This document shows, piece by piece, positions 34,548-47,633 of a stretch of DNA of 64,000 bases. Positions within the stretch are counted from its first letter, which is position 1. The number at the start of each line of letters is the position of its first letter. The notes under the pieces are model-generated. The model had not been told where the DNA came from and did not search any database. It saw only the letters and a list, made by a program, of their open reading frames with translations. The stretch covers positions 1 through 64,000 of the forward strand of contig JAAVAX010000010.1 in NCBI GenBank assembly GCA_014803855.1, written 5' to 3'. Source of the stretch: Mycoplasma sp. Its GTDB lineage: Bacteria > Bacillota_I > Bacilli_A > Mycoplasmatales > Metamycoplasmataceae. The translations under genes were made by a program, and so were the position numbers.

Positions 34548-34625
34548 TTACCATAGATCATAATATTTATTTTCACATTTGATAATGATGTGATTTTCCT
34601 AATACATAAGGAGTATTTAATTATT

Positions 34626-37600
34626 ATGAAAAGAGAAAATAAAAAGAAAGCAAATAAAGCTTTACTTACATCTTTAATTGCTATTAGTGCTATCATTCCT
34701 ATTGCTGTTGCTACTGGTCAACAAATAATAAAAAATAAAGATGTATCAAAATATTCATCATTTGTTAATAAAAAATCTAATGATTGAAGTTCTATTGAAG
34801 ACCTTAATGTTGCAACTAAAGATATGTTTATTAATGCAAAAAATATTGAACCAATCACAAGTATTAGTAAAGGTCAAGCATTAACTCCATATGGTTGATT
34901 GGGTACATATAATACAGAAACAAATACAAGTCCTGATGATAGTAATACAACTGATAAATTTAATAATAATACATTAGTTCTTGTTGGTTGAGATGGATCA
35001 ATAATTTGAGCTAATAATGATAATAAGACAAAAATATATAATGCTAAATATCATTTTAAATCCGATTCAATTTTTGTAATTCGTGGTGAAGATGAAAATG
35101 GTGTAGGGACATCAGCAAATAAAATGTCACTAACAATTCATGATGCAAAAACAGGGAAAATGTTAACTAATAATTCAGAAAATTCTAATGAAAGTATTTC
35201 ATGACAATTTAATGATTTTTTTGAAAAAAAGAAAGACTATGTTTGAGATGAATTCAATAAAAAGGATTTATATTATCAAGACATCATTACTATGAGTAAT
35301 GGTGATGTTGTTTGATTTTATATGCCAAATATGCTAAAAATCAAGAGAAGTACAAATTCAAAGTTTGGTGGTGGATTGGTATCTTTTAAAGAATATTTAG
35401 AACTTTTAAAGGATGAATATTGAAAAGTTCTTGTTATTAAAAAAACAGAAATTGAAAATGCTAAAAATAAAGGTTTATTGATAAAACTTAATGATAAAAA
35501 TGATTTCCCAATTACAGATGTTTATAATCATGCCAACAGCAAAGATGGTGAATTGGTATTTAATCCAATTTTTATTCCTGGTGAAGATAGTAAATGTTAT
35601 TTATTTTCATCTATTAAAACAATTAAAGATGGTTTACATAATGATTTGGAATTAAGATATTCATTTAAATATGATTCTAATAGTAATAAATTTAGTTATG
35701 AAAACAATGTTAATAAAAATGAAAATATATCATTTAGTGAATCATTAATTTCATTTAATACAAATCATAATAAAATAAAAGCTTGAACTTCTTCAGAATA
35801 TAATAAAGCTTTCTTATTACCAACTAGAAATATGTTTGATGAAACAGTAGTCACAGTTGTTTTCCCCTATGCAGCTAGAAATAAGATTAATGATTCAAAT
35901 GGTGAAAATGATATCACTGTAAATGTTCCAATTTTTAATGCTATACAATTTCATTTTAGAAATTCTAATAGTAGTGGTTATTATCATTACTACCAACGTG
36001 ATTCAACTAATAGAAAAACAGTTAAATTTAATTTTGGTGAATTGATTTATAAAGAATGAATAACAAATAGTGATAATGAAAATAAACAATACAATAAAGA
36101 ATCATTTTTTTATCCATGAGGTTATAGCAAAAAGAATACTAAAACTGATGAAAATGTAACAATACCTCATAGCAATCAAGTATATAATCGTGTAATTAGT
36201 GTTAGTCCATTTGATGGAACTCTTGTTTATGCTGCAAGACCTAATCAAAAATTAGATTTGGAATTCAATGATAACATTAAAAATAAATTTGCTAGTTTTT
36301 GGATTGCAAATTCTTCAACTAGAAAAGTAGCAAATTTTATAATACCTAATGATTCTAGTACTTTCAAAAATACTTTACATATCTCATCTAAAATGATAAA
36401 AAATGATAATAACCATAATTATGGTGATATTAATGAAGTTTATAAAAATGGATTTTGATTTGATATTAATTCAATCTCAATAAGACAAAATAAAAATTCT
36501 CTTAATCTTTATTACAGGGTTGAAGGTTCAAGTAAAAATTTACAAGTTAATAATTCACTAACAGGTGTTTGTTCATCACCAATTGGTCTTTTATCAGATG
36601 TATTAAAAAATGCAAAATGAATAGAATTTGATCAAGTTCCTAAAATAACAAATAACAATGATAAAAATTATAATTTGATTCAAATAACAGATAAAAGTTA
36701 TAGTAATTTTATTACTTCTCGTGCTGATTTAGCTAAATGATACCCAAAAACATATCAAAATTTAATCAAGGGTGGAAATACATATAATGATGGAGAATTA
36801 ATATCTAATAATACAAGAAGTGCAAATAGAGCAATTGCAAGTTCCTACAATTCCAAACTAAATGAAAGTTTGTTTAAAAGCAATAAGTCAGTAGAATTGT
36901 TTTCATTATGAGATTCAGGTGATAATTTTAATAATATTCCTATAAAGGAAAATAAAATTATTTTCAAATCTTTTGAAAGAGATAGTAATACTTTAAATGC
37001 AAAAATGGAATTTGTTCTAGATAACTTTAATAACATTTATATTAATAATAGTAATAAGAATAATATGGAATTGTCAATTCCATTGGTTATCAAAAATCCC
37101 TCTTATCAGTTTTTAAATTCATTATCAAATAGTGTTAAGCTTTCTTCTTGAAATCAACCATCTAATTCAAATTCATTAGACATTGATTGACAATGAATTT
37201 CAAATAATAATAAACAAAATACTGATAATAAATTTGGTAATGACAATATTGGTTATTTTGAAAATAAAGATAATGGTAGTTTTACTTTCAATAAAATAAA
37301 TGATGGTAAACATAATAATAGCAACCCACTTAGAATTGAATTGAAAATTAATTATGATCCTTTAAACATAGCTTCAAAGGACTGAAAATCAATAGTCTCA
37401 TCAGCAAATAGTGGTGAATTTGAAAAAACATATCCAATTGATAAAAATTCAAATGAGAAAAGCTTCCAAAATGTGTTGGAGAACTATATTAATTGAAAAA
37501 GTAAAAATCTTTTTTATGGAGATGTATCTAATATAACAAGTGGTATTTATGGACTTGGTCAATTAACTATTGAAGCATATTTAAAACTTAATCCTAATTG

Positions 37601-40600
37601 AAATAAAGCAAATGGAATTGTTTATGAAATGTCTGATGGAATGCAGATAATATATAATAAAAATACAAAAGTCAAATACCTTTATAAAGATGAATATTTT
37701 GGATCAAGAATAATATATGATCAGTCATCCAATAGTTGAGATGAAAATAATCAATATGGTTTTAGTTCTAAGTCAAAATACAATAGCAGTTTATGGTCTA
37801 GTTCTAAAACAAGTTCAGATAATTTTAAAGCATATATTTCTGACTCTAGTCAATTAAAAAATACATTAGTAAGGGATACAAATAAAAATACAAATGATGT
37901 TTTAGAAGCTATATATGAAGATGGTGAAAAAAGTAAAATAATTTTAAGTGCAAAAGAAAATTATGGTAAATGAGCTCAGCAAAGATTTAGGTCATATAAT
38001 CAAATGATTGGTGCTTATGTAATATTTGAATATCAAAATCTTAATTCTGATGATTGGATACCTATTAATAATGAAAAAATAATAAAAGATAGTGAGATGC
38101 AAAATGCATTTGAAAATAATAATTATATAATTGAATTTTCAAATGAAGATAAATCTAAAATTCAAAATATTAAGGCAATTAGATTTAGACTAAAGCCTTT
38201 AGATAAAAATACAAATGATAGCAATAATTTGATAACTTCTTATAAAAATGAAAGTAATGACTTTAAAGATGTTAAAACTTTTGTTTCAGATGCAATTCCA
38301 GTTAATTTAACTAAAATTAATGTTGATTATTCTCAATTTGAAAATATAAGTTGAGATTTTACTAATGGTAGTGAATATTTAAATACAATTAGCAAAGATA
38401 GTTTTATTAGCTCTTTAAATAAATATGAAGAAGAACTCTTAAATAAAGGCAATCTAAAAGTTTATAAAGAAAATTTAGAACTAAAATATTCTTTAAACAA
38501 AAATTCAGATTGGACAGATGCTGACTCTCTTTATGAAAAATTAAAAAATAGATGAGAAAATTATAGTGATTCTAATCAAGGTATTATTGCTTTATATGAT
38601 AAAGATAATAGTAATCAAAATAATTCAACAAAAATATATATCAAATTAACAAATAAAAACAATACTAAATATAGTATCAATGAAAGAAATAATGAAAAGG
38701 CATTTATAAGTAAAACAAAAATAAAATTTAAGATTGATTTATCATCATATGTAAATGTTTTAAAAAGTAATAAAACAAATATTACTAAGGGTAATAATCT
38801 TATATCAAAAATAATTCCACCAATTATGTCTGGAAAAATAGGTTCATCATTTTTATCTGGAAAAAATTTTGATGATATAGCATCATTGCTTAAAAAATTT
38901 GGTATTGATATTGAATATCAGAAAACTGATAATAATTGAACAAAAGAGGTGGGTGATATAACAACATATGATGTTCATTCTCCATATATAAAAATTAGAT
39001 TTAAAAACAACAATACACATAATGTAAAAGCAACTATTGATGGAAATAATTTTTTTACTAATAATATTTCAGAAGAAATTTCTTTACAATTTAATGTACC
39101 ACTATTAATTAAATTTGATAATTCAACATTGGAATGAGCAAAGACAAATGATCTAGTTTTAGGTAATACTAAGGATATAAAAATAGATGAATTAAAAGAA
39201 AAAGAATTTATTAAAAAAATTTCTGATGAATGTAAAAAAAGCACACCTGATGCTTTGTGAGATCAATTAGAACAATACCTAGAAATTCAATATGCTATTG
39301 GTGATGCCAATATTAGTAAAAATTTCCATAATAGAAATGATTTCATTCAACATCTAAAATCTTTAAATACAACTCAATATAATAATAAGATTAGTATTAA
39401 ACTACATCTAAAATCAAACAATTATAGTGAAAATGACACAAAATTTATATTAGATAGTGAATCAGAGAAAAATAAAACATTGTATGAAAATAATAATGAC
39501 AAAATAAAAATATACATCATTGATGATGGCTATTCAAATTCAATAGAACAAACAATAGTATCTGGCACAAAATCAAAACTAGTTTTTACATTTTCACAAA
39601 AAATTGATTCAATTAAAAGTGGAAGTATTAAAGGATTACAATTAGGTTTTTCATTTAAACAAGATATTAAGTATGAAGATAGTGATGGTGATGATATTCA
39701 TTCTTCATGAATTAACACAGTACCTAATTCATCTAATCCTGATACTCAATCACTAAAAATAAAAATATATGTAAGTAATCCAAATAAATATATTTATGGT
39801 GGAGAGAAAAAAGTTTATTCAATTGATTTAACTAAAGTAGCTCAAATTGTTGATGTGGATAGTTCATGATTTAATCAAAATCCTTTAACAATTGAAGAAA
39901 AGAAATATCTAAAGGATCTTAAAGAAACTGATTTAATTAGTTGAGAAAATTCCATTTTAGATAAATCTAATACAATCAAAAGCAATCCATCATTGAAAAG
40001 TAAAATTTCAATTAAATATAGTATTAATGACAATAATACTCAATATAGTTCCAAGGAATTAATTAATAAACTACAATCAATGCAAAAGGAATATACTTCT
40101 AACTCCTTAGGTATAGTTCAATTGTGAGATGGAAATCATGGAACTAAAATTTATGCAACATTTGATAAATCAGATCAATGAATTACATTTGGAGATACAA
40201 ATGGAAATACAATAGATAATTTAAAAGGTCTTGTAGATACTTCTAAGATTAAAACATTAGTTGATTTACATAAATATTTTGAAGTTTTAGTAAGTAATAA
40301 AACATCTATGCAATTAAAAGATGGACAAATTGGAACTATTCAAAGTTTTACACCACCAGCTATGATAAATGGAACTGGTTTTTTAAATGGAAAAACTTTT
40401 GAGGAAATAAGCACTTGTCTATCAACATTTGGAATTACTTTTACATTTAATGAAACAGGTAAAAATGAACAATGAAAATTAAAGGAAAATGTAAATGAAT
40501 ATGACCCTTCTAAAGGATTTTTAAGTTTAGGTATTAAAACAGAATATGAAAATATAGATTTGAAAATAAATTTTGATGAGGAAATAATTAATAAAAATAA

Positions 40601-43600
40601 TAAGCAAGTTCCATATCTATATAAATTAAATCTTTTAGCACCTATTTTAATTAGTGTGGATAATAGTGATTTAAAACAACTAAAATTTGAAGGTAATACT
40701 AAAGTAATTGATAATGCTAGTGATATTAATACAAAAATATTGAGTATTATTGAGAAAATAAAAAATGATATGAAACAATCTAATTCTTCATTGGATTTAG
40801 AGGATTTAAATGTTGAAATTAGATTTTCATTAAATAGCATTAAATTAGAAAATGATTTTAGTGCAAATTCTAACTATACAGATGATGGTATTTGGTACAC
40901 ATTTGATAAATTAAATAGTATTTTATCTAATTCAAAGATTAATTATAATAGCAATAAAGTATTAGCTAAATTCTATGTTAAGAATATGCCAAAAATTGAT
41001 AACACTGTAGATAAATATCAATTATCAGTAAAAAATTATCAAGTCATTAATGATGAAAATTTAACAACTTCATCTAATTTTAAAATATATATCAATAGTA
41101 CTAATGAAACAAGTAGTCAATGAATTATTCAAAATTTAAAAATTACTGGTTCTCAAGAAAATTTTTGCATATCAAATGTTGATAAATGAAAAAACTCTAT
41201 ACCAAATGGATTAAGTGTTGAATATAATGTTATGACTAGTTCTAATTTAGGAACAAATAAAGAAAATCAACCAAGTGAGGATGGATGAACACAAGATTTT
41301 AATAATGCTAAACCAATTAATGCAACTCGTGATTTTTGAATAAGATTTAAAGTTGGTGAAGCTTATGTATTTGAAAATGCTTCTAAATCTAATTCAAAAT
41401 ATTCAGATGCTATTAAATTAGATGCTTCTAGCATTAGAGCTTCATTAAAAATTAAATCTGAGTGATTAGAAAAAATATCATTATCTGGAAATTTAATTGA
41501 GTTACAAATTGATGAACAAAATACTTTTGATGAAATAAAAAAATTGGGTCAATTACCATTTGATAACATCATTCAAATTAAATATACATATGATGGTGAA
41601 AAATGATTTAGTAAGGATGAATTTATTAATGAATTAAAGGAATTTAATAAACATGGTAATTCAATTAATTGAATTATTTTAAGAGAAAATATTAAAGCAT
41701 GTTTTTCATTAAATAAAATGATTAATGATAATTTTGCAAATAAGTATGTTTTGGAAGTTGATAATGATATTATTGATCAATTAAATTGAAATAAATATGA
41801 AAAACAATTAATTACAGATAAATTTAATACAAGTATTAAGGGTTATATTAATTTAGATAAACTTGATATTTTTGATGCTTCAAATTTTAAAGTAATTGGA
41901 ACAAATGAGAAAGCATATTTAATAATACAAAATGTTAATAGATTAAATGAACTATTAAATCAATACTCATCTAATGAATTATTTTCTATCTTATATAAAT
42001 GAGATGAAAATGGTAACTATCAGGAAGAAAATAAAATATGAAATCCAGGCAAAAATATAGAGGAAACAATATTACTAAATGGTAAGTATAATAATAGATT
42101 TTTAGCAATTCAATTTAATGTAAAAAATAATAATTATGATTTATATAAATATGGAAAACATATAGATAACAATTCTTATGAAATTAAGACACCAGATATT
42201 GATGTTCAAATTTCAGTTGCTATAGAAAATCCATTAAAAGGAAAAATAATTGATTTACTATTTACTAATGAGGATAAACCAATTTATTATAATGGGGAAG
42301 GTGGATTTGAAGTAAAAATTTCAAATAGATCATTTGAAGATTATTTAAACACTTTGGAACATGAATTAACAAAAGATGAAAAAGAAGCTCTTGAACTAAC
42401 TTATCTAGTTTCATCTAAAAAAATAGATGATGAGCAATACAATGAAGTAATTTCACACAATAAAATTGTTGAGTATTCTGATTCAAAAAATAAATATGGT
42501 ATTTGAAAAACATTAGATACTAATATTAAGAATCCTAATTTAAATTTAAATGTAAATGATTATGTGATTTTGGCAATAAGAATCAAAAAAGATAAATTGA
42601 CTTCACCAACAAATCTAAATGGATATATTATTAAAGATAATGATTACATTGTATCTAGTCAAAATCGTGTTTTTGGATATAAAGTTCATACTGATTATAT
42701 TGATGTAGATTGGTCATCACTAAAATTAAAAAATGTAGGATATGGTGAGGATAAACCTTATGGTATTGATGGTTATTCAATGTTAGATCAGATATCATTA
42801 AGAAAAATGAATCATTTAGATTTTAATGATGATTTTTTAAATGTTTCCTTGAAATTAAATTACTATAATGAGTTTTATTTAGATAAAAAAAATCAGATAT
42901 TAGTTTCTGGAACAGGCTCAAGGTTAGTCAAAAGAAATTCAGATGGAGCTGAAACAAGAGGTAATTATAAAGATTTAAATGGTGCAAATATACTAGATAA
43001 TGCTGGGAATCCCATTCCAATTTTATATAAGGACACAAAATTGGGTATATTAGCTAATCCAATTAAATTTCCATCTGTCAAAAGAAGTTATGATCTAACA
43101 GAAATTTCATCAAATACTTATACATTAGATTTATTTAATAGTGATGATAATCCATTATATAGTTTCTTTAAAAATCAAGATATTTCAATTATATTTGAAA
43201 ATAAAAAAGGAGATGCTCCAAATGGATTATTTGATTATTATGTAGATAAAATTGGAGTTCTAAAAGAATATAAAATTAATAATCAAATTAAATTTCCAAT
43301 TCAAAATGATGAAATGATTCAATATTCATTCAATTCTAATGAATTTATTGGATACATTAGGGATTTAGATAATATAGACAAGATTTATGAAAACACAATC
43401 GATTCTAAAAAATCTCCTATTAATGGTCAATCAAAATTGGTGCATATGTATAGTGTTATTCGTAGATTAAACAATGAATTGGATGAAAAAAGATTTAGTA
43501 CTATTGAAGAAATTGAAAAACAACTTAAATATGATTTCAATGGACAAGTAATATTGAAAACAACTTATACTCCTATTAATGGTTTTCCTCAACTAATTGC

Positions 43601-44702
43601 AAACAATGAAATAAGTTCAATTACTAATTTACAAAATGGTGATTCATTTAAAGTTGAAATTATATCAAGTAATGATAATGACTTATTTTTTGTTGAGCAA
43701 CCAGAACCATTAATATTTTCTATTAGTAGTCTATATGAACAAGATATAGAAGAATCATTATTAAGATATTTAAGAGTTCAACAAAATGGAGAATTCAATG
43801 GAGTTGCATCATTTAACATTTATGTTGATAATCCTAATGATGATGTTGATAATAATAAGTCTATTAGTGATTTATTACAAGGTTATAAATTTATGATTAG
43901 AGTTTGAAATAAAGAAAAAAATATCAAATATTCATGGAGAAGTAATATTATAGAAATTAATGATTTGCAAAATGGAGACAAAGTAGAATGAAGATTAGTG
44001 ACTTCAAATGAAAAAGATGTTGCTAAAAATTATTACAATACTATTGCTAATTTAGATAATCACAATTTTGAAAATAATATATATTCATTTATTCAAGTTA
44101 ATAAAATTGGTAATTCAAAAACATCTATTATTAGCAATAGCATTGGTAAGAATTTAAAACTAGATACTTATCCAGAAGATTCAGGGTTTATAATTGATGG
44201 ATTAAAACAAAAATCAGAAGAATTATTCAATTCAATTACTGAAGATCAATTTATTAAATTGATGGAGGAAATGAATTTTAGTTACACAGGAATCAATGGT
44301 CAAGGTAATATGATTAGTGATAAAGATATAACAAAGCTAATAATTAAACATAATGATTATAAAGACATTCAAACTGTGCAATATTTAATTGACAAGAAAT
44401 ATTTAACTTTTTATAGTAATAACATTGAGTTTAATTGAAATCAAATTAAAGATAAAAATGGTAATTGATTAGTATCACCAGGAACTTTATCAAATAAAGA
44501 CAAAATTTCTATTAGATATAAGGATGACAATATGGCATCATATTATCAGTGAAATGCAAAAGATGTTTCAGGATTAATGGATAAATCTGATCAATTATCA
44601 TTGTTGTCTTATGTATTTATAGGTTGTGCTTCATTATTTACATTAGGTATATTTGGAATAATTTATCTATGTATGAGAAATAAAAAAATAAAGAAAAAAT
44701 AA
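34626..44702 (+). CDS. Giant modular surface protein, 3,358 residues
   Basis: One open frame of 3,359 codons when TGA is Trp. The N-terminus (MKRENKKKANK then a hydrophobic stretch without Cys) is a signal anchor; the C-terminus has one membrane helix (SYVFIGCASLFTLGIFGII) and a basic tail (MRNKKIKKK). Between them, no enzyme domain is recognisable. From about 38000 to 42800 a motif of form I-x-Y-S with a Trp some 10-25 residues later recurs every 350-425 bases (about 130 residues), indicating a tandem array of beta-rich modules. Composition is Asn/Ser/Lys-rich. AAGGAG (34608-34613) lies 12 nt before ATG 34626. Probable adhesin, motility or shielding protein; function is not established. Frame continuity was checked along the sequence by consistent phase of its long segments. 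Confidence 0.85.
38012..42800 (+). repeat. Tandem array of ~130-residue modules inside the giant protein
   Basis: Starts of the repeated motif are seen near 38012 (IFEYQN), 38485 (LKYSLN), 38908 (IEYQKT), 39283 (IQYAIG), 39636 (LGFSFK), 40011 (IKYSIN), 40431 (FTFNE), 40812 (IRFSLN), 41211 (VEYNVM), 41577 (IKYTYD), 41985 (LYKWDE) and 42390 (LTYLVS). Spacing averages about 390 bases. Most modules end with a strand like IKIRFKNN, IYVSNPN, IRFKVGEA or IQFNVKNN. Identity between modules is low at DNA level. Confidence 0.65.
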
Positions 44703-44767: not shown

Positions 44768-44853
44768 TGTATGAAAAATGATTTTGTTTAAGGTGAAAAG
44801 ATATAAGAAATGTTATATAAAACACCATAAATAGAATCTAGAAAGAGGTGTTT

Positions 44854-45843
44854 ATGACTAAAAAAACAAAAATTGCTCTATTTTCATTAGGAGGTATTGT
44901 AGCTGTTGGTGCTGTTGCTTCAGCAACTACCATAGCTATGCTTCCAAAAGCTCAAAGCAATCTTACTTCTATAGCTACTTCAGGTGATTATAAAGATAAA
45001 AATGAATCAATTAATAAACCTATTGAAGTTGAAGCTGCAAATGGTGTAAGAATTGGTATTGAAAAAGTTTTATCTTCAACTAGAATTGAAGAACAAAAAT
45101 ATAAATTAACACTTATTAATGATGATGAAAAAGGTTTAGTCCACTTTGTTGATGACTCAGGTGAAAATGCTGGTAATCAAATTGAAGTATATAGAGGACA
45201 ACAAGTTCATGTTAGAGTTGATGTTAAAGATGAATATAAAGATTCTTTAACTGTTGTTAACTTTTGAGTATACAACCCAGAAAACCCAAATTACTCTTTA
45301 GGTGTTAAAAAAGTTGATGATAATAATTATCACTTTGTTATGCCTGAAGGAGAATATGCTGATGACTTCTATGGGTTTGCTACTGAATTAAAAGCATCTA
45401 TTACCTATGGTCAAAAAGCTCTAGGAAAATGAGAATTTGATTTTAATACAAGACACTATGTATACAATGTTACATCTGATAACTTTGTATTTGATGATGA
45501 AGCTAATCCAGAATTAAAAATGCAACAATATCCAAATGGTTCATTTGTTGTTTATACACTAAGATTAAATGGACATAATACAATTATCAAAAATATGACA
45601 ATACCTAAAAATGTTCAATTTGAAGTTGTAGATGATTCTGTTTTTGATCAAACAACATTAACTTCTCCTGTTTTAGGATTTGCTCAAGATGGTAAATTAG
45701 ATTTCAATGGAGCAGCTGGATTAAACAGAGGTGTTAGAATAACTAGAAGAACTATGAGTGAATTTAATTGATCTTCATGAAGTCAAGATGAAAAAATTCT
45801 TATAGCTGGTGAAGAGTTTAATCAAATTCCTTCTAACAAATAA
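44854..45843 (+). CDS. Surface-anchored protein, two-member family (copy 2)
   Basis: A 329-residue paralog of the protein encoded at 5243-6196. It has an N-terminal signal anchor (MTKKTKIALFSLGG plus Val/Ala-rich helix) without a lipobox Cys, then a shared domain: LTLINDDEKG, VKDEYKDSLTVVNF, NYSLGVKK, GKWEFDF, DEANPELKMQ, NMTIPKNVQFE, and a C-terminal RGVRITR. ATG 44854 lies just after AGAGGTG; the GTG at 44848 is part of that site. The gene follows the giant surface protein by 151 bases, has its own promoter, and ends at a terminator. Function unknown. Confidence 0.82.
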
Positions 45844-45863
45844 TTGAAAAAATATGAATATAA

Positions 45864-45898
45864 TAAGAGAGCACAAAAGTTGCTCTTTTATTTATTAT
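45864..45898 (+). terminator. Rho-independent terminator after surface protein copy 2
   Basis: Arms AAGAGAGCA and TGCTCTTTT (one mismatch/bulge) around CAAAAGT, followed by a T-rich tract. It starts 21 bases past the stop codon. Confidence 0.7.
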
Positions 45899-45950: not shown

Positions 45951-46241
45951 TTATTTATTTGACCCATGTTTAAGAATGAATTGTTCTCTCTGAAATTTTC
46001 TAAATTGAAAATTACTAAAAACACTACAAAAAATCCCATTTTCTTTTAATATAAAATATGAATGTCAAACATCAGATTTTCTTCCATAAGAAAAGATCAT
46101 ATATCCATATTCATCTATTGCCTTTTGAAAATCACCAAATCTATATAATGTCCCTCTATATTTTTTTGAAACTTCCTTTAAGGTTTCTTCTAATTCAGAA
46201 ATCTCAACATCTTGTTCCATATCGATAACTAATCAAGCCAT
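45951..46241 (-). CDS. Small unknown protein beside membrane AAA+ gene
   Basis: A 96-residue protein, not recognised. It starts MAWLVIDMEQDVEISELEE, has a helical segment (LKEVSKKYRG), and then a strand-rich half with FGDFQKAIDEYGYMIFSYGR and several aromatic residues. No signal or membrane helix. AAAGG is placed well before ATG 46241. It lies 12 bases after the stop of the membrane-anchored ClpB-like gene on the same strand, so the two are likely co-expressed and may act together. Confidence 0.7.
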
Positions 46242-46253
46242 ATTAATTCCTTT

Positions 46254-47633
46254 CTATATTACATTTATATTAACGTTTTTATTTTTATACTCGAAGTTAA
46301 TAGTTTTATTTTGAAGTTTATCAAAATCTAGATTATTTTCAAATAATGACAGCATGAATGCTTTTTTAAATACATCAAATTCATTTCTTATATCTCTAGC
46401 ACCTTTTGTTTTATCTATTCCTAAAAGTATTGAGTTATACAATGAATCTTTATCAAACTTTACTTTTACTTTTCTTTTATTTAATTGATTAGTAAATTCT
46501 TTGAAATGAATATCCAAAATTAAAAATAAATCTTCTTTATCTTTTATCATGTTGAATGGTATTATGTTATCTTTTCCTATTCTCCCTAAAATTTCTGGTC
46601 TATTTAATTCATTCACAAAAAAGTCATCTATTGATTTACTAATAACTCTATTAACTTCATCTTTAGACATATTTTCTCTTACTCTATTAGCTCCTATATT
46701 AGAGGTAAATATAATAAAACTATTCTTGAAGCTAATTTTCTCACCTTTGTTAGATGTCACCATTCCCTCATCTAAAATTTGTAAAAATAAATCATAAACT
46801 GACTTGTCACCTTTTTCAATTTCATCAAATAAAACAATTGAATCAGGATTTTTTTTCATAGCTTTTATCAAGGTTCCACCTTCATCATAACCCACATATC
46901 CATTAGGAGCACCTAACAATTGCTGAGTTGCCATTTCTGATTTATATTCTGACATATCAAAACGATTAATATCTTTATTTTCATATAAGAAACTATTTAA
47001 TGTTTTTGCCATTTCTGTTTTACCGACACCTGTTGGACCTACAAAGAAAAATATTCCTGCAGGTCTATTAGATTTGTCATCAAGCATATACATTAATTGA
47101 ACTAATTGTGATTTTATTTTATCTTGAGCTAATTTTTGTCCAATAACTTTGTTATTAAAATGATCATCAAAGACATTTAATTTATCTTTAGTTAATGAAA
47201 AAGTATTTTTTTTGTGGACTTTTTTTGTCATTGTTTTATTCTGATCTAATTCTTTTGTTTTTATGTCATGGTTGTCATCTTCAAAAGCATAAACATAATC
47301 TGGATTAAATCATTTTATATATATAAAAAATAGGACAAGTGAAATACATATAAAAATTGGACCAAGGATAACAAAACACAATTCAGCAGCTGTATTTAGA
47401 TTTAAAGTAGGATTGGATAAAGAAATACTTCCTAAGATAGTAAAAGTTAGCCCTGTTAATAATAATATACAACCTATTCAAATTAATCAATAATCTAGGA
47501 AATTTTCTCAAATATCATCCAATCAATCTATACCAAAATCACAAAAAAATGAAATGAAACCTAAAACAATCAAAAATATTGGAATTCCTAATATTGAAGA
47601 TGTTAGAATTGTGCTAATTATTGAAAAATCCAT
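46254..47633 (-). CDS. Membrane-anchored ClpB-like AAA+ ATPase
   Basis: A 459-residue protein. Three hydrophobic helices occupy about residues 8-30, 47-68 and 82-108, followed by a short linker and a single AAA+ module of the ClpA/ClpB D2 type. The module has Walker A GPTGVGKT at 199-206, pore loop GYVGYDEGG, Walker B SIVLFDEIEKG, sensor 1 FTSN, arginine-finger NRPEILGRIG and sensor 2 KGARDIRNEF, plus the small C-terminal domain. There is no N-domain, D1 ring or ClpP-binding loop visible. All catalytic residues are present, so an active membrane-tethered unfoldase is likely; substrate unknown. ATG 47633 has no clear ribosome site. Confidence 0.82.

What the first reader, a model, noticed from the sequence alone, without database searches (positions are those of the whole stretch)
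46254..47633. ClpB-D2-type AAA+ unfoldase fused to three membrane helices
All AAA+ catalytic motifs are intact, but the normal ClpB N-domain and first ring are replaced by membrane segments. FtsH is the usual membrane AAA+ protease; a membrane-tethered Clp/Hsp100-type module without protease is rare. It could extract or assemble membrane or surface proteins such as the adjacent giant protein.
Basis: partly seen in the sequence, partly recalled or inferred. Interest (0 to 1): 0.75.

Follow-up and report, generated by a model that had tools for sequence, protein, structure and literature searches.

The report
Membrane-anchored single-ring ClpB-like motor pair
A mycoplasma gene joins three membrane-spanning helices to the protein-unfolding motor of a ClpB chaperone, and is paired with a small uncharacterised protein that related species fuse directly to the motor, which suggests an undescribed two-part machine that pulls on proteins at the cell membrane.

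Summary
On the minus strand (46254-47633, genetic code 4) a 459-aa frame encodes three hydrophobic helices, a flexible linker and one intact ClpB-D2-type AAA+ module. A congener (G303) has the same fusion (58% identity), with open frame and helices kept and the suggested internal start ATG absent.

It is not the organism's ClpB cut short: that gene is elsewhere (C10:162685). The window protein falls in a strongly supported clade (100/100) outside ClpB, together with AAA+ proteins that have a degenerate first ring. Sequence matches of its grade were seen only in 9 Mycoplasmatales genomes.

The overlooked part is the 96-aa gene 10 bp downstream (45951-46241). It encodes an unnamed domain ("SD") that five relatives fuse directly to the AAA+ module, with or without membrane helices. 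In 320 genomes of the order, strong SD hits occur only beside these AAA+ genes. One weaker hit lies in a membrane-anchored J-domain (DnaJ) protein.

The proposed link to the adjacent giant Gli521-like protein is not supported: the two are convergent, separated by a terminator, and not co-distributed.

Best reading: a membrane-tethered, protease-free, single-ring unfoldase/disaggregase, with SD as substrate adaptor. Motor function is inferred from conserved motifs and Skd3 precedent; substrate unknown. New variant of a known kind.

The parts
46254..47633 (-). Membrane-anchored AAA+ gene, 459 aa, code 4 (P0001)
47304..47633 (-). Codons 1-110: three predicted membrane helices (3-32, 35-73, 79-109)
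   Evidence: hydropathy; AlphaFold helices (pLDDT 52-84); hydrophobic character kept in G303 at 30% identity
47196..47303 (-). Codons 111-146: flexible, poorly conserved linker
   Evidence: pLDDT <50 at 114-141; 19% identity to G303
46257..47195 (-). Codons 147-459: ClpB-D2-type AAA+ module with small C-terminal subdomain
   Evidence: Pfam/NCBIfam; Foldseek ClpB NBD2 4lj7 target TM 0.86; 72% identity and dN/dS 0.14 to G303
47016..47039 (-). Walker A GPTGVGKT (199-206)
   Evidence: invariant in alignment A2
46875..46901 (-). Pore loop 1 GYVGYDEGG (245-253)
   Evidence: aromatic -GYVG- loop as in ClpB and Skd3
46821..46838 (-). Walker B IVLFDE (266-271)
46698..46709 (-). Sensor 1 FTSN (309-312)
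46575..46601 (-). Arginine-finger region RPEILGRIG (345-353); GRIG replaces ClpB's NRID
46386..46403 (-). Sensor 2 GARDIR (411-416)
45951..46241 (-). 96-aa SD gene: unnamed domain, fused to the same AAA+ module in relatives
   Evidence: no Pfam/NCBIfam/PADLOC match
46248..46253 (-). Ribosome-binding site AAAGGA of the SD gene, directly after the AAA+ stop codon
   Evidence: sequence shown
45862..45892 (.). 12-pair terminator-like hairpin between the SD gene and the convergent Gli521-side genes
   Evidence: 4 such sites found, 0.2 expected

Best explanation
A two-gene operon encoding a membrane-tethered, protease-independent AAA+ protein remodeller. Three N-terminal helices anchor the protein in the single cell membrane; a flexible linker holds a single ClpB-D2-type ring on the cytoplasmic side; the ring threads polypeptides through its pore using the -GYVG- loop. 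SD, translated right behind it, acts as adaptor or substrate-recognition subunit; relatives fuse SD to the motor and to membrane helices in several combinations. The likely job is to extract, unfold or disaggregate proteins at the cytoplasmic face of the membrane. Shown: the gene, motifs, predicted helices and fold, SD-AAA+ linkage by fusion and adjacency. Inferred: hexamer, cytoplasmic side, threading, SD's role, substrate class.
For: All AAA+ motifs and the pore-loop tyrosine are intact in the window protein and the core motifs are strongly conserved in the family, and the AAA+ part is under strong purifying selection (dN/dS 0.14). The core models as ClpB NBD2. A single D2-type ring can work alone: Skd3's NBD resembles Hsp104 NBD2 and its -GYVG- tyrosine is needed for disaggregation (PMC7343390). 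No protease domain and no detectable ClpP. Membrane anchoring recurs: three helices in G000, G303 and the G263 TM-SD gene, one helix in G060 and G267. SD is the consistent partner: separate gene in G000 and G303; SD fused to the AAA+ in G263, G255, G060, G237 and G267; strong SD hits nowhere else in 320 genomes of the order. A weaker SD pair sits between a membrane helix and a J-domain in G191 (20.1 bits; best of 2000 shuffles 6.7), which points to chaperone work.
Against: No biochemical evidence. SD has no known relatives and its single-sequence model is uninformative (pLDDT 53). Two family members (G217, G105) have neither predicted membrane helices nor SD, so anchoring is not universal, and G255 also shows no helix. 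The helix region evolves fast (30% identity; dN/dS 0.84, dS partly saturated). Gene neighbourhoods other than SD are not conserved, so the substrate is unguided. Cytoplasmic placement of the ring is inferred from the ATP requirement and the anchor, not tested.
Confidence: 0.6

Rival explanations
1. It is a dedicated assembly or export factor for the neighbouring giant Gli521-like gliding/surface protein.
For: Adjacent in the window; the neighbour matches Gli521 (E 2e-68, well below that family's cut-off). Some relatives of the SD/AAA+ genes also lie beside surface-protein genes (G060, G191).
Against: Convergent genes with a terminator between them. No Gli521-like match in G303 or in the eight f3 genomes tested. 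G302 and G298 carry Gli521-like genes without this AAA+. Adjacency is not conserved in G303. G303 is only about 70% complete, so its lack of Gli521 is weak evidence.
Confidence: 0.07
2. It belongs to an anti-phage or conflict system, like the related degenerate-D1 AAA+ proteins that sit in a helicase-containing cluster.
For: Shares a clade and the RPE(L/I)L(G/N)RIG motif with those proteins. Sporadic distribution across genera. PADLOC candidate PDC-M37B matches (1e-40).
Against: The organism's ordinary ClpB scores comparably against the same PADLOC model (122.8 versus 137.7 bits), so that match is not specific. None of the cluster partners accompany the window gene or its close relatives. SD has no PADLOC match.
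Confidence: 0.15
3. The AAA+ protein works as a soluble single-ring chaperone and the N-terminal helices are a regulatory or targeting segment rather than a permanent anchor, comparable with Skd3's removable hydrophobic stretch.
For: Skd3 carries an inhibitory hydrophobic stretch that a rhomboid protease removes (PMC7343390). Some relatives lack helices (G255, G217, G105).
Against: Three separate helices with conserved spacing are more than a targeting stretch. In G263 the same kind of three-helix segment is fused to SD instead, which points to an anchoring role.
Confidence: 0.13

Closest known systems
Skd3 / human CLPB (single-ring mitochondrial disaggregase)
   Same: One ClpB/Hsp104-NBD2-type ring with a -GYVG- pore loop, no protease, a hydrophobic N-terminal stretch (PMC7343390); sequence match to solved structures
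   Different: Skd3 has ankyrin repeats and one cleavable hydrophobic stretch; here three membrane helices and a separate SD partner
Torsins (ER Clp/Hsp100 relatives)
   Different: Torsins lack the aromatic pore loop and the arginine finger and need LAP1/LULL1 (PMC5425593); this protein has the pore loop and an arginine at the finger position
ClpB/Hsp104
   Same: D2 sequence and fold
   Different: No N-domain, D1 or M-domain; outside the ClpB clade; normal ClpB encoded separately
FtsH
   Same: N-terminal membrane helices plus one AAA+ ring
   Different: Different AAA+ class (AAA_2/D2 type) and no M41 peptidase
Degenerate-D1 + D2 AAA+ proteins of the helicase/radical-SAM-like cluster in Bacilli (unnamed)
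   Same: Nearest relatives of the D2 module by tree
   Different: About 605 aa with a degenerate first domain lacking Walker A, no membrane helices in most, usually seen with helicase-cluster partners

Membership tests
ClpB/Hsp104 disaggregase | N-domain, D1 ring and M-domain before D2 | tested here: not met
   Only D2 (TIGR03346 positions 552-850) matches; front is three helices
ClpB/Hsp104 disaggregase | D2 falls in the ClpB clade | tested here: not met
   Separate clade with 100/100 support
Clp/Hsp100 AAA+ (superfamily level) | D2-type AAA+ core with Walker A/B, sensors, -GYVG- pore loop, small C-terminal subdomain | tested here: met
   (ClpB_D2-small Pfam score 21.1, just under cut-off 21.9)
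ClpP-partner unfoldases (ClpA/C/X) | IGF/IGL ClpP-binding loop and a ClpP in the genome | tested here: not met
   No IG[FL] loop seen in the D2 region of the translated sequence (by eye); no ClpP match in 13 genomes, control genomes positive
FtsH | M41 metallopeptidase domain | tested here: not met
   No such match in Pfam or NCBIfam
Torsin | Loss of aromatic pore loop and of the arginine finger | tested here: not met
   GYVGYDEGG present, Arg present in LGRIG; literature definition; Torsin Pfam only 0.011
Skd3 | Ankyrin-repeat N-domain | tested here: not met
   No ankyrin match
Skd3 | Stand-alone disaggregase activity | not testable with these tools
   needs purified protein
SD-associated membrane AAA+ family (defined here) | AAA+ clade B module next to or fused with SD | tested here: met
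   Tree; SD hits. G217 and G105 are in the clade but lack SD

The most novel reading that the evidence does not exclude
An undescribed membrane chaperone system of Mycoplasmatales: SD is a modular adaptor that brings either a single-ring Hsp100 motor (AAA+) or an Hsp70 co-chaperone (J-domain) to the membrane, giving wall-less, genome-reduced bacteria a protease-free machine for handling membrane or surface proteins.
Probability: 0.35. Interest if true: 0.72.

Novelty: new variant of a known kind. Interest (0 to 1): 0.52.

Why it matters
Bacterial membrane protein quality control is usually credited to FtsH. A membrane-anchored Hsp100 ring without a protease would be a bacterial counterpart of what Skd3 and torsins do in eukaryotic compartments, and the SD domain offers a testable handle on how such a motor picks its substrate. 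Both genes are small and separable, so binding, ATPase and localisation can be tested directly.

Tried and rejected
1) Reading it as a fragment or duplicate of the organism's ClpB: rejected by the tree and by the separate intact ClpB. 2) Reading it as a defence protein because of PADLOC PDC-M37B: rejected, the ordinary ClpB scores comparably. 3) SD as a ClpS-like or L7/L12-like fold (an impression from predicted strand/helix order): not supported by profile searches of PDB and Pfam; the single-sequence AlphaFold model was too poor to use, so no fold search was run with it. 4) genome contigs and viral-contig scans with the AAA+ alignment: only general ClpB-type motifs came back, best matches 29-43% identity; only L095 (Bradyrhizobium) was informative. 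5) Phage and plasmid DNA searches: partial AAA+ matches only. 6) Link to Gli521: see rivals.

Full report
WHAT IS THERE. The gene lies on the minus strand, 46254-47633, and encodes 459 aa under code 4. Residues 1-110 are hydrophobic: three segments pass a Kyte-Doolittle threshold, and AlphaFold2, which had no homologues for this part, still predicts three long helices (3-32, 35-73, 79-109; pLDDT 52-84), followed by a disordered linker (114-141) and a confident AAA+ core (pLDDT mostly >90). Foldseek matches the core to ClpB NBD2 (4lj7, TM 0.86 by target length) and to ClpC D2. Every AAA+ motif is present, including the aromatic pore loop GYVGYDEGG and an arginine in the finger position. No protease domain is present.

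IS THE FUSION REAL. A second species of the genus (G303) has the same layout. The AAA+ part is 72% identical with dN/dS 0.14. The helix region is only 30% identical (dN/dS about 0.84, synonymous sites partly saturated), but stays open and hydrophobic with the same three-segment spacing. The suggested internal start codon is absent in G303. In the window 133 upstream codons are open, about 2e-4 by chance at this composition. I take translation from 47633 as likely but not proven: there is no clear ribosome-binding site before it.

NOT A BROKEN ClpB. The same genome encodes a 719-aa ClpB at C10:162685. In a tree of 67 D2 domains the window protein groups with seven close relatives (100/100), and these with the degenerate-D1 AAA+ proteins of Bacilli (100/100), apart from ClpB and most other Hsp100s. 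The two groups share RPE(I/L)L(G/N)RIG where ClpB has RPEF(L/I)NRID. Among the 298 order genomes searched with the protein, the 12 of the genus and 395 of the class, matches of this grade (E <= 1e-90) occur in nine genomes: G000, G303 and seven of another family, f3.

THE PARTNER. Ten bases after the AAA+ stop codon, behind a good ribosome-binding site, starts a 96-aa gene (45951-46241). Its domain, here called SD, has no Pfam, NCBIfam or PADLOC match. Relatives show it fused: G263 has a three-helix-SD gene followed by an SD-AAA+ gene; G060 has helix-SD-SD-AAA+; G267 has helix-SD-SD followed by SD-SD-AAA+; G255 and G237 have SD-AAA+; G303 repeats the window arrangement. A profile of 11 SD copies found G303's SD independently (6.6e-19), and its strong hits in 320 order genomes all sit beside such AAA+ genes; in a phylum-wide sample of 392 genomes only G000 and G060 scored strongly. 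Fusion in some species and adjacency in others is the classic sign that two proteins work together. The two family members without SD (G217, G105) have a different soluble front.

A HINT OF CHAPERONE WORK. One weaker SD hit (G191) is a protein with one membrane helix, two SD-like stretches and a DnaJ J-domain (E 2e-18 for the J-domain). The second SD-like stretch scores 20.1 bits over the whole domain against a best of 6.7 in 2000 shuffles. A lipoprotein (L066) scored 17.4-19.5 bits and looks like chance, so the G191 case rests partly on its architecture.

NEIGHBOURS. The giant gene upstream matches Gli521 of M. mobile only partly and has several paralogous pieces in this genome, many at contig ends. 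It converges on the AAA+/SD pair with a 12-pair terminator-like hairpin between them. Gli521-like genes and the AAA+ gene do not co-occur across the 20 genomes tested, the window's own genome excepted. Other neighbours vary: TrpRS-like (G303, by eye), ribonucleotide reductase (G263), SecDF (G255), DpnII (G237), a surface-protein family (G060).

MECHANISM. Most likely six copies form one ring tethered to the membrane through the helices; the pore loop threads a polypeptide at the cytoplasmic face; SD recruits or hands over substrate. Shown: the parts and their linkage. Inferred: ring, threading, side of the membrane, adaptor role. Precedent: Skd3 shows that one D2-type ring with a -GYVG- loop is enough for disaggregation (PMC7343390); torsins show a membrane-associated Hsp100-type single ring but without pore loop or arginine finger (PMC5425593). 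With no ClpP detected and no peptidase domain, degradation is unlikely to be its own output.

VERDICT. Real, rare, and a new variant of a known kind, better described as a two-component family than as a fused ClpB. I found no description of such a family in the held papers, a limited search.

Noticed in passing
L039, L043-L047, L049, L051, L275-L279; L095 (Bradyrhizobium hipponense): Conserved, unnamed cluster in Mollicutes and other Bacilli: SF1 helicase (~1500 aa), two proteins without Pfam match (~720 and ~365 aa), a degenerate-D1 + ClpB-D2 AAA+ (~605 aa), often an NrdG-like radical-SAM protein. A Bradyrhizobium locus has helicases, AAA+ and the NrdG-like gene. Possible conflict system.
   Followed up: partly
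34590-44702 and G000 contigs C2, C4, C5, C7, C8, C11: Gli521-like giant protein with several paralogous full or partial copies in the genome, many at contig ends, so the assembly probably breaks at these repeats.
   Followed up: partly
L253:2559-3437 (G191): Membrane helix + two SD-like stretches + J-domain protein directly downstream of a leucine-rich-repeat surface-like gene.
   Followed up: yes
44848-45843: 331-aa protein with one N-terminal helix next to the Gli521-like gene, in the position where M. mobile has gli42 (gene order recalled, not checked); no family match.
   Followed up: no
L035:11472-19102 (G060): Three paralogous ~700-aa proteins with N- and C-terminal hydrophobic segments directly upstream of and on the same strand as the TM-SD-SD-AAA+ gene.
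   Followed up: no
L038:1616-2479 (G267): Lipoprotein-like gene divergent from the SD genes with a match to ADP-ribosyltransferase exoenzyme PF03496 (2.6e-10).
   Followed up: no
G299, G285, G175, G248, G074, G300, G301 (same genus): These genomes gave no ClpB-type match at all (E <= 1e-5), so ClpB may have been lost within the genus; some are incomplete.
   Followed up: no
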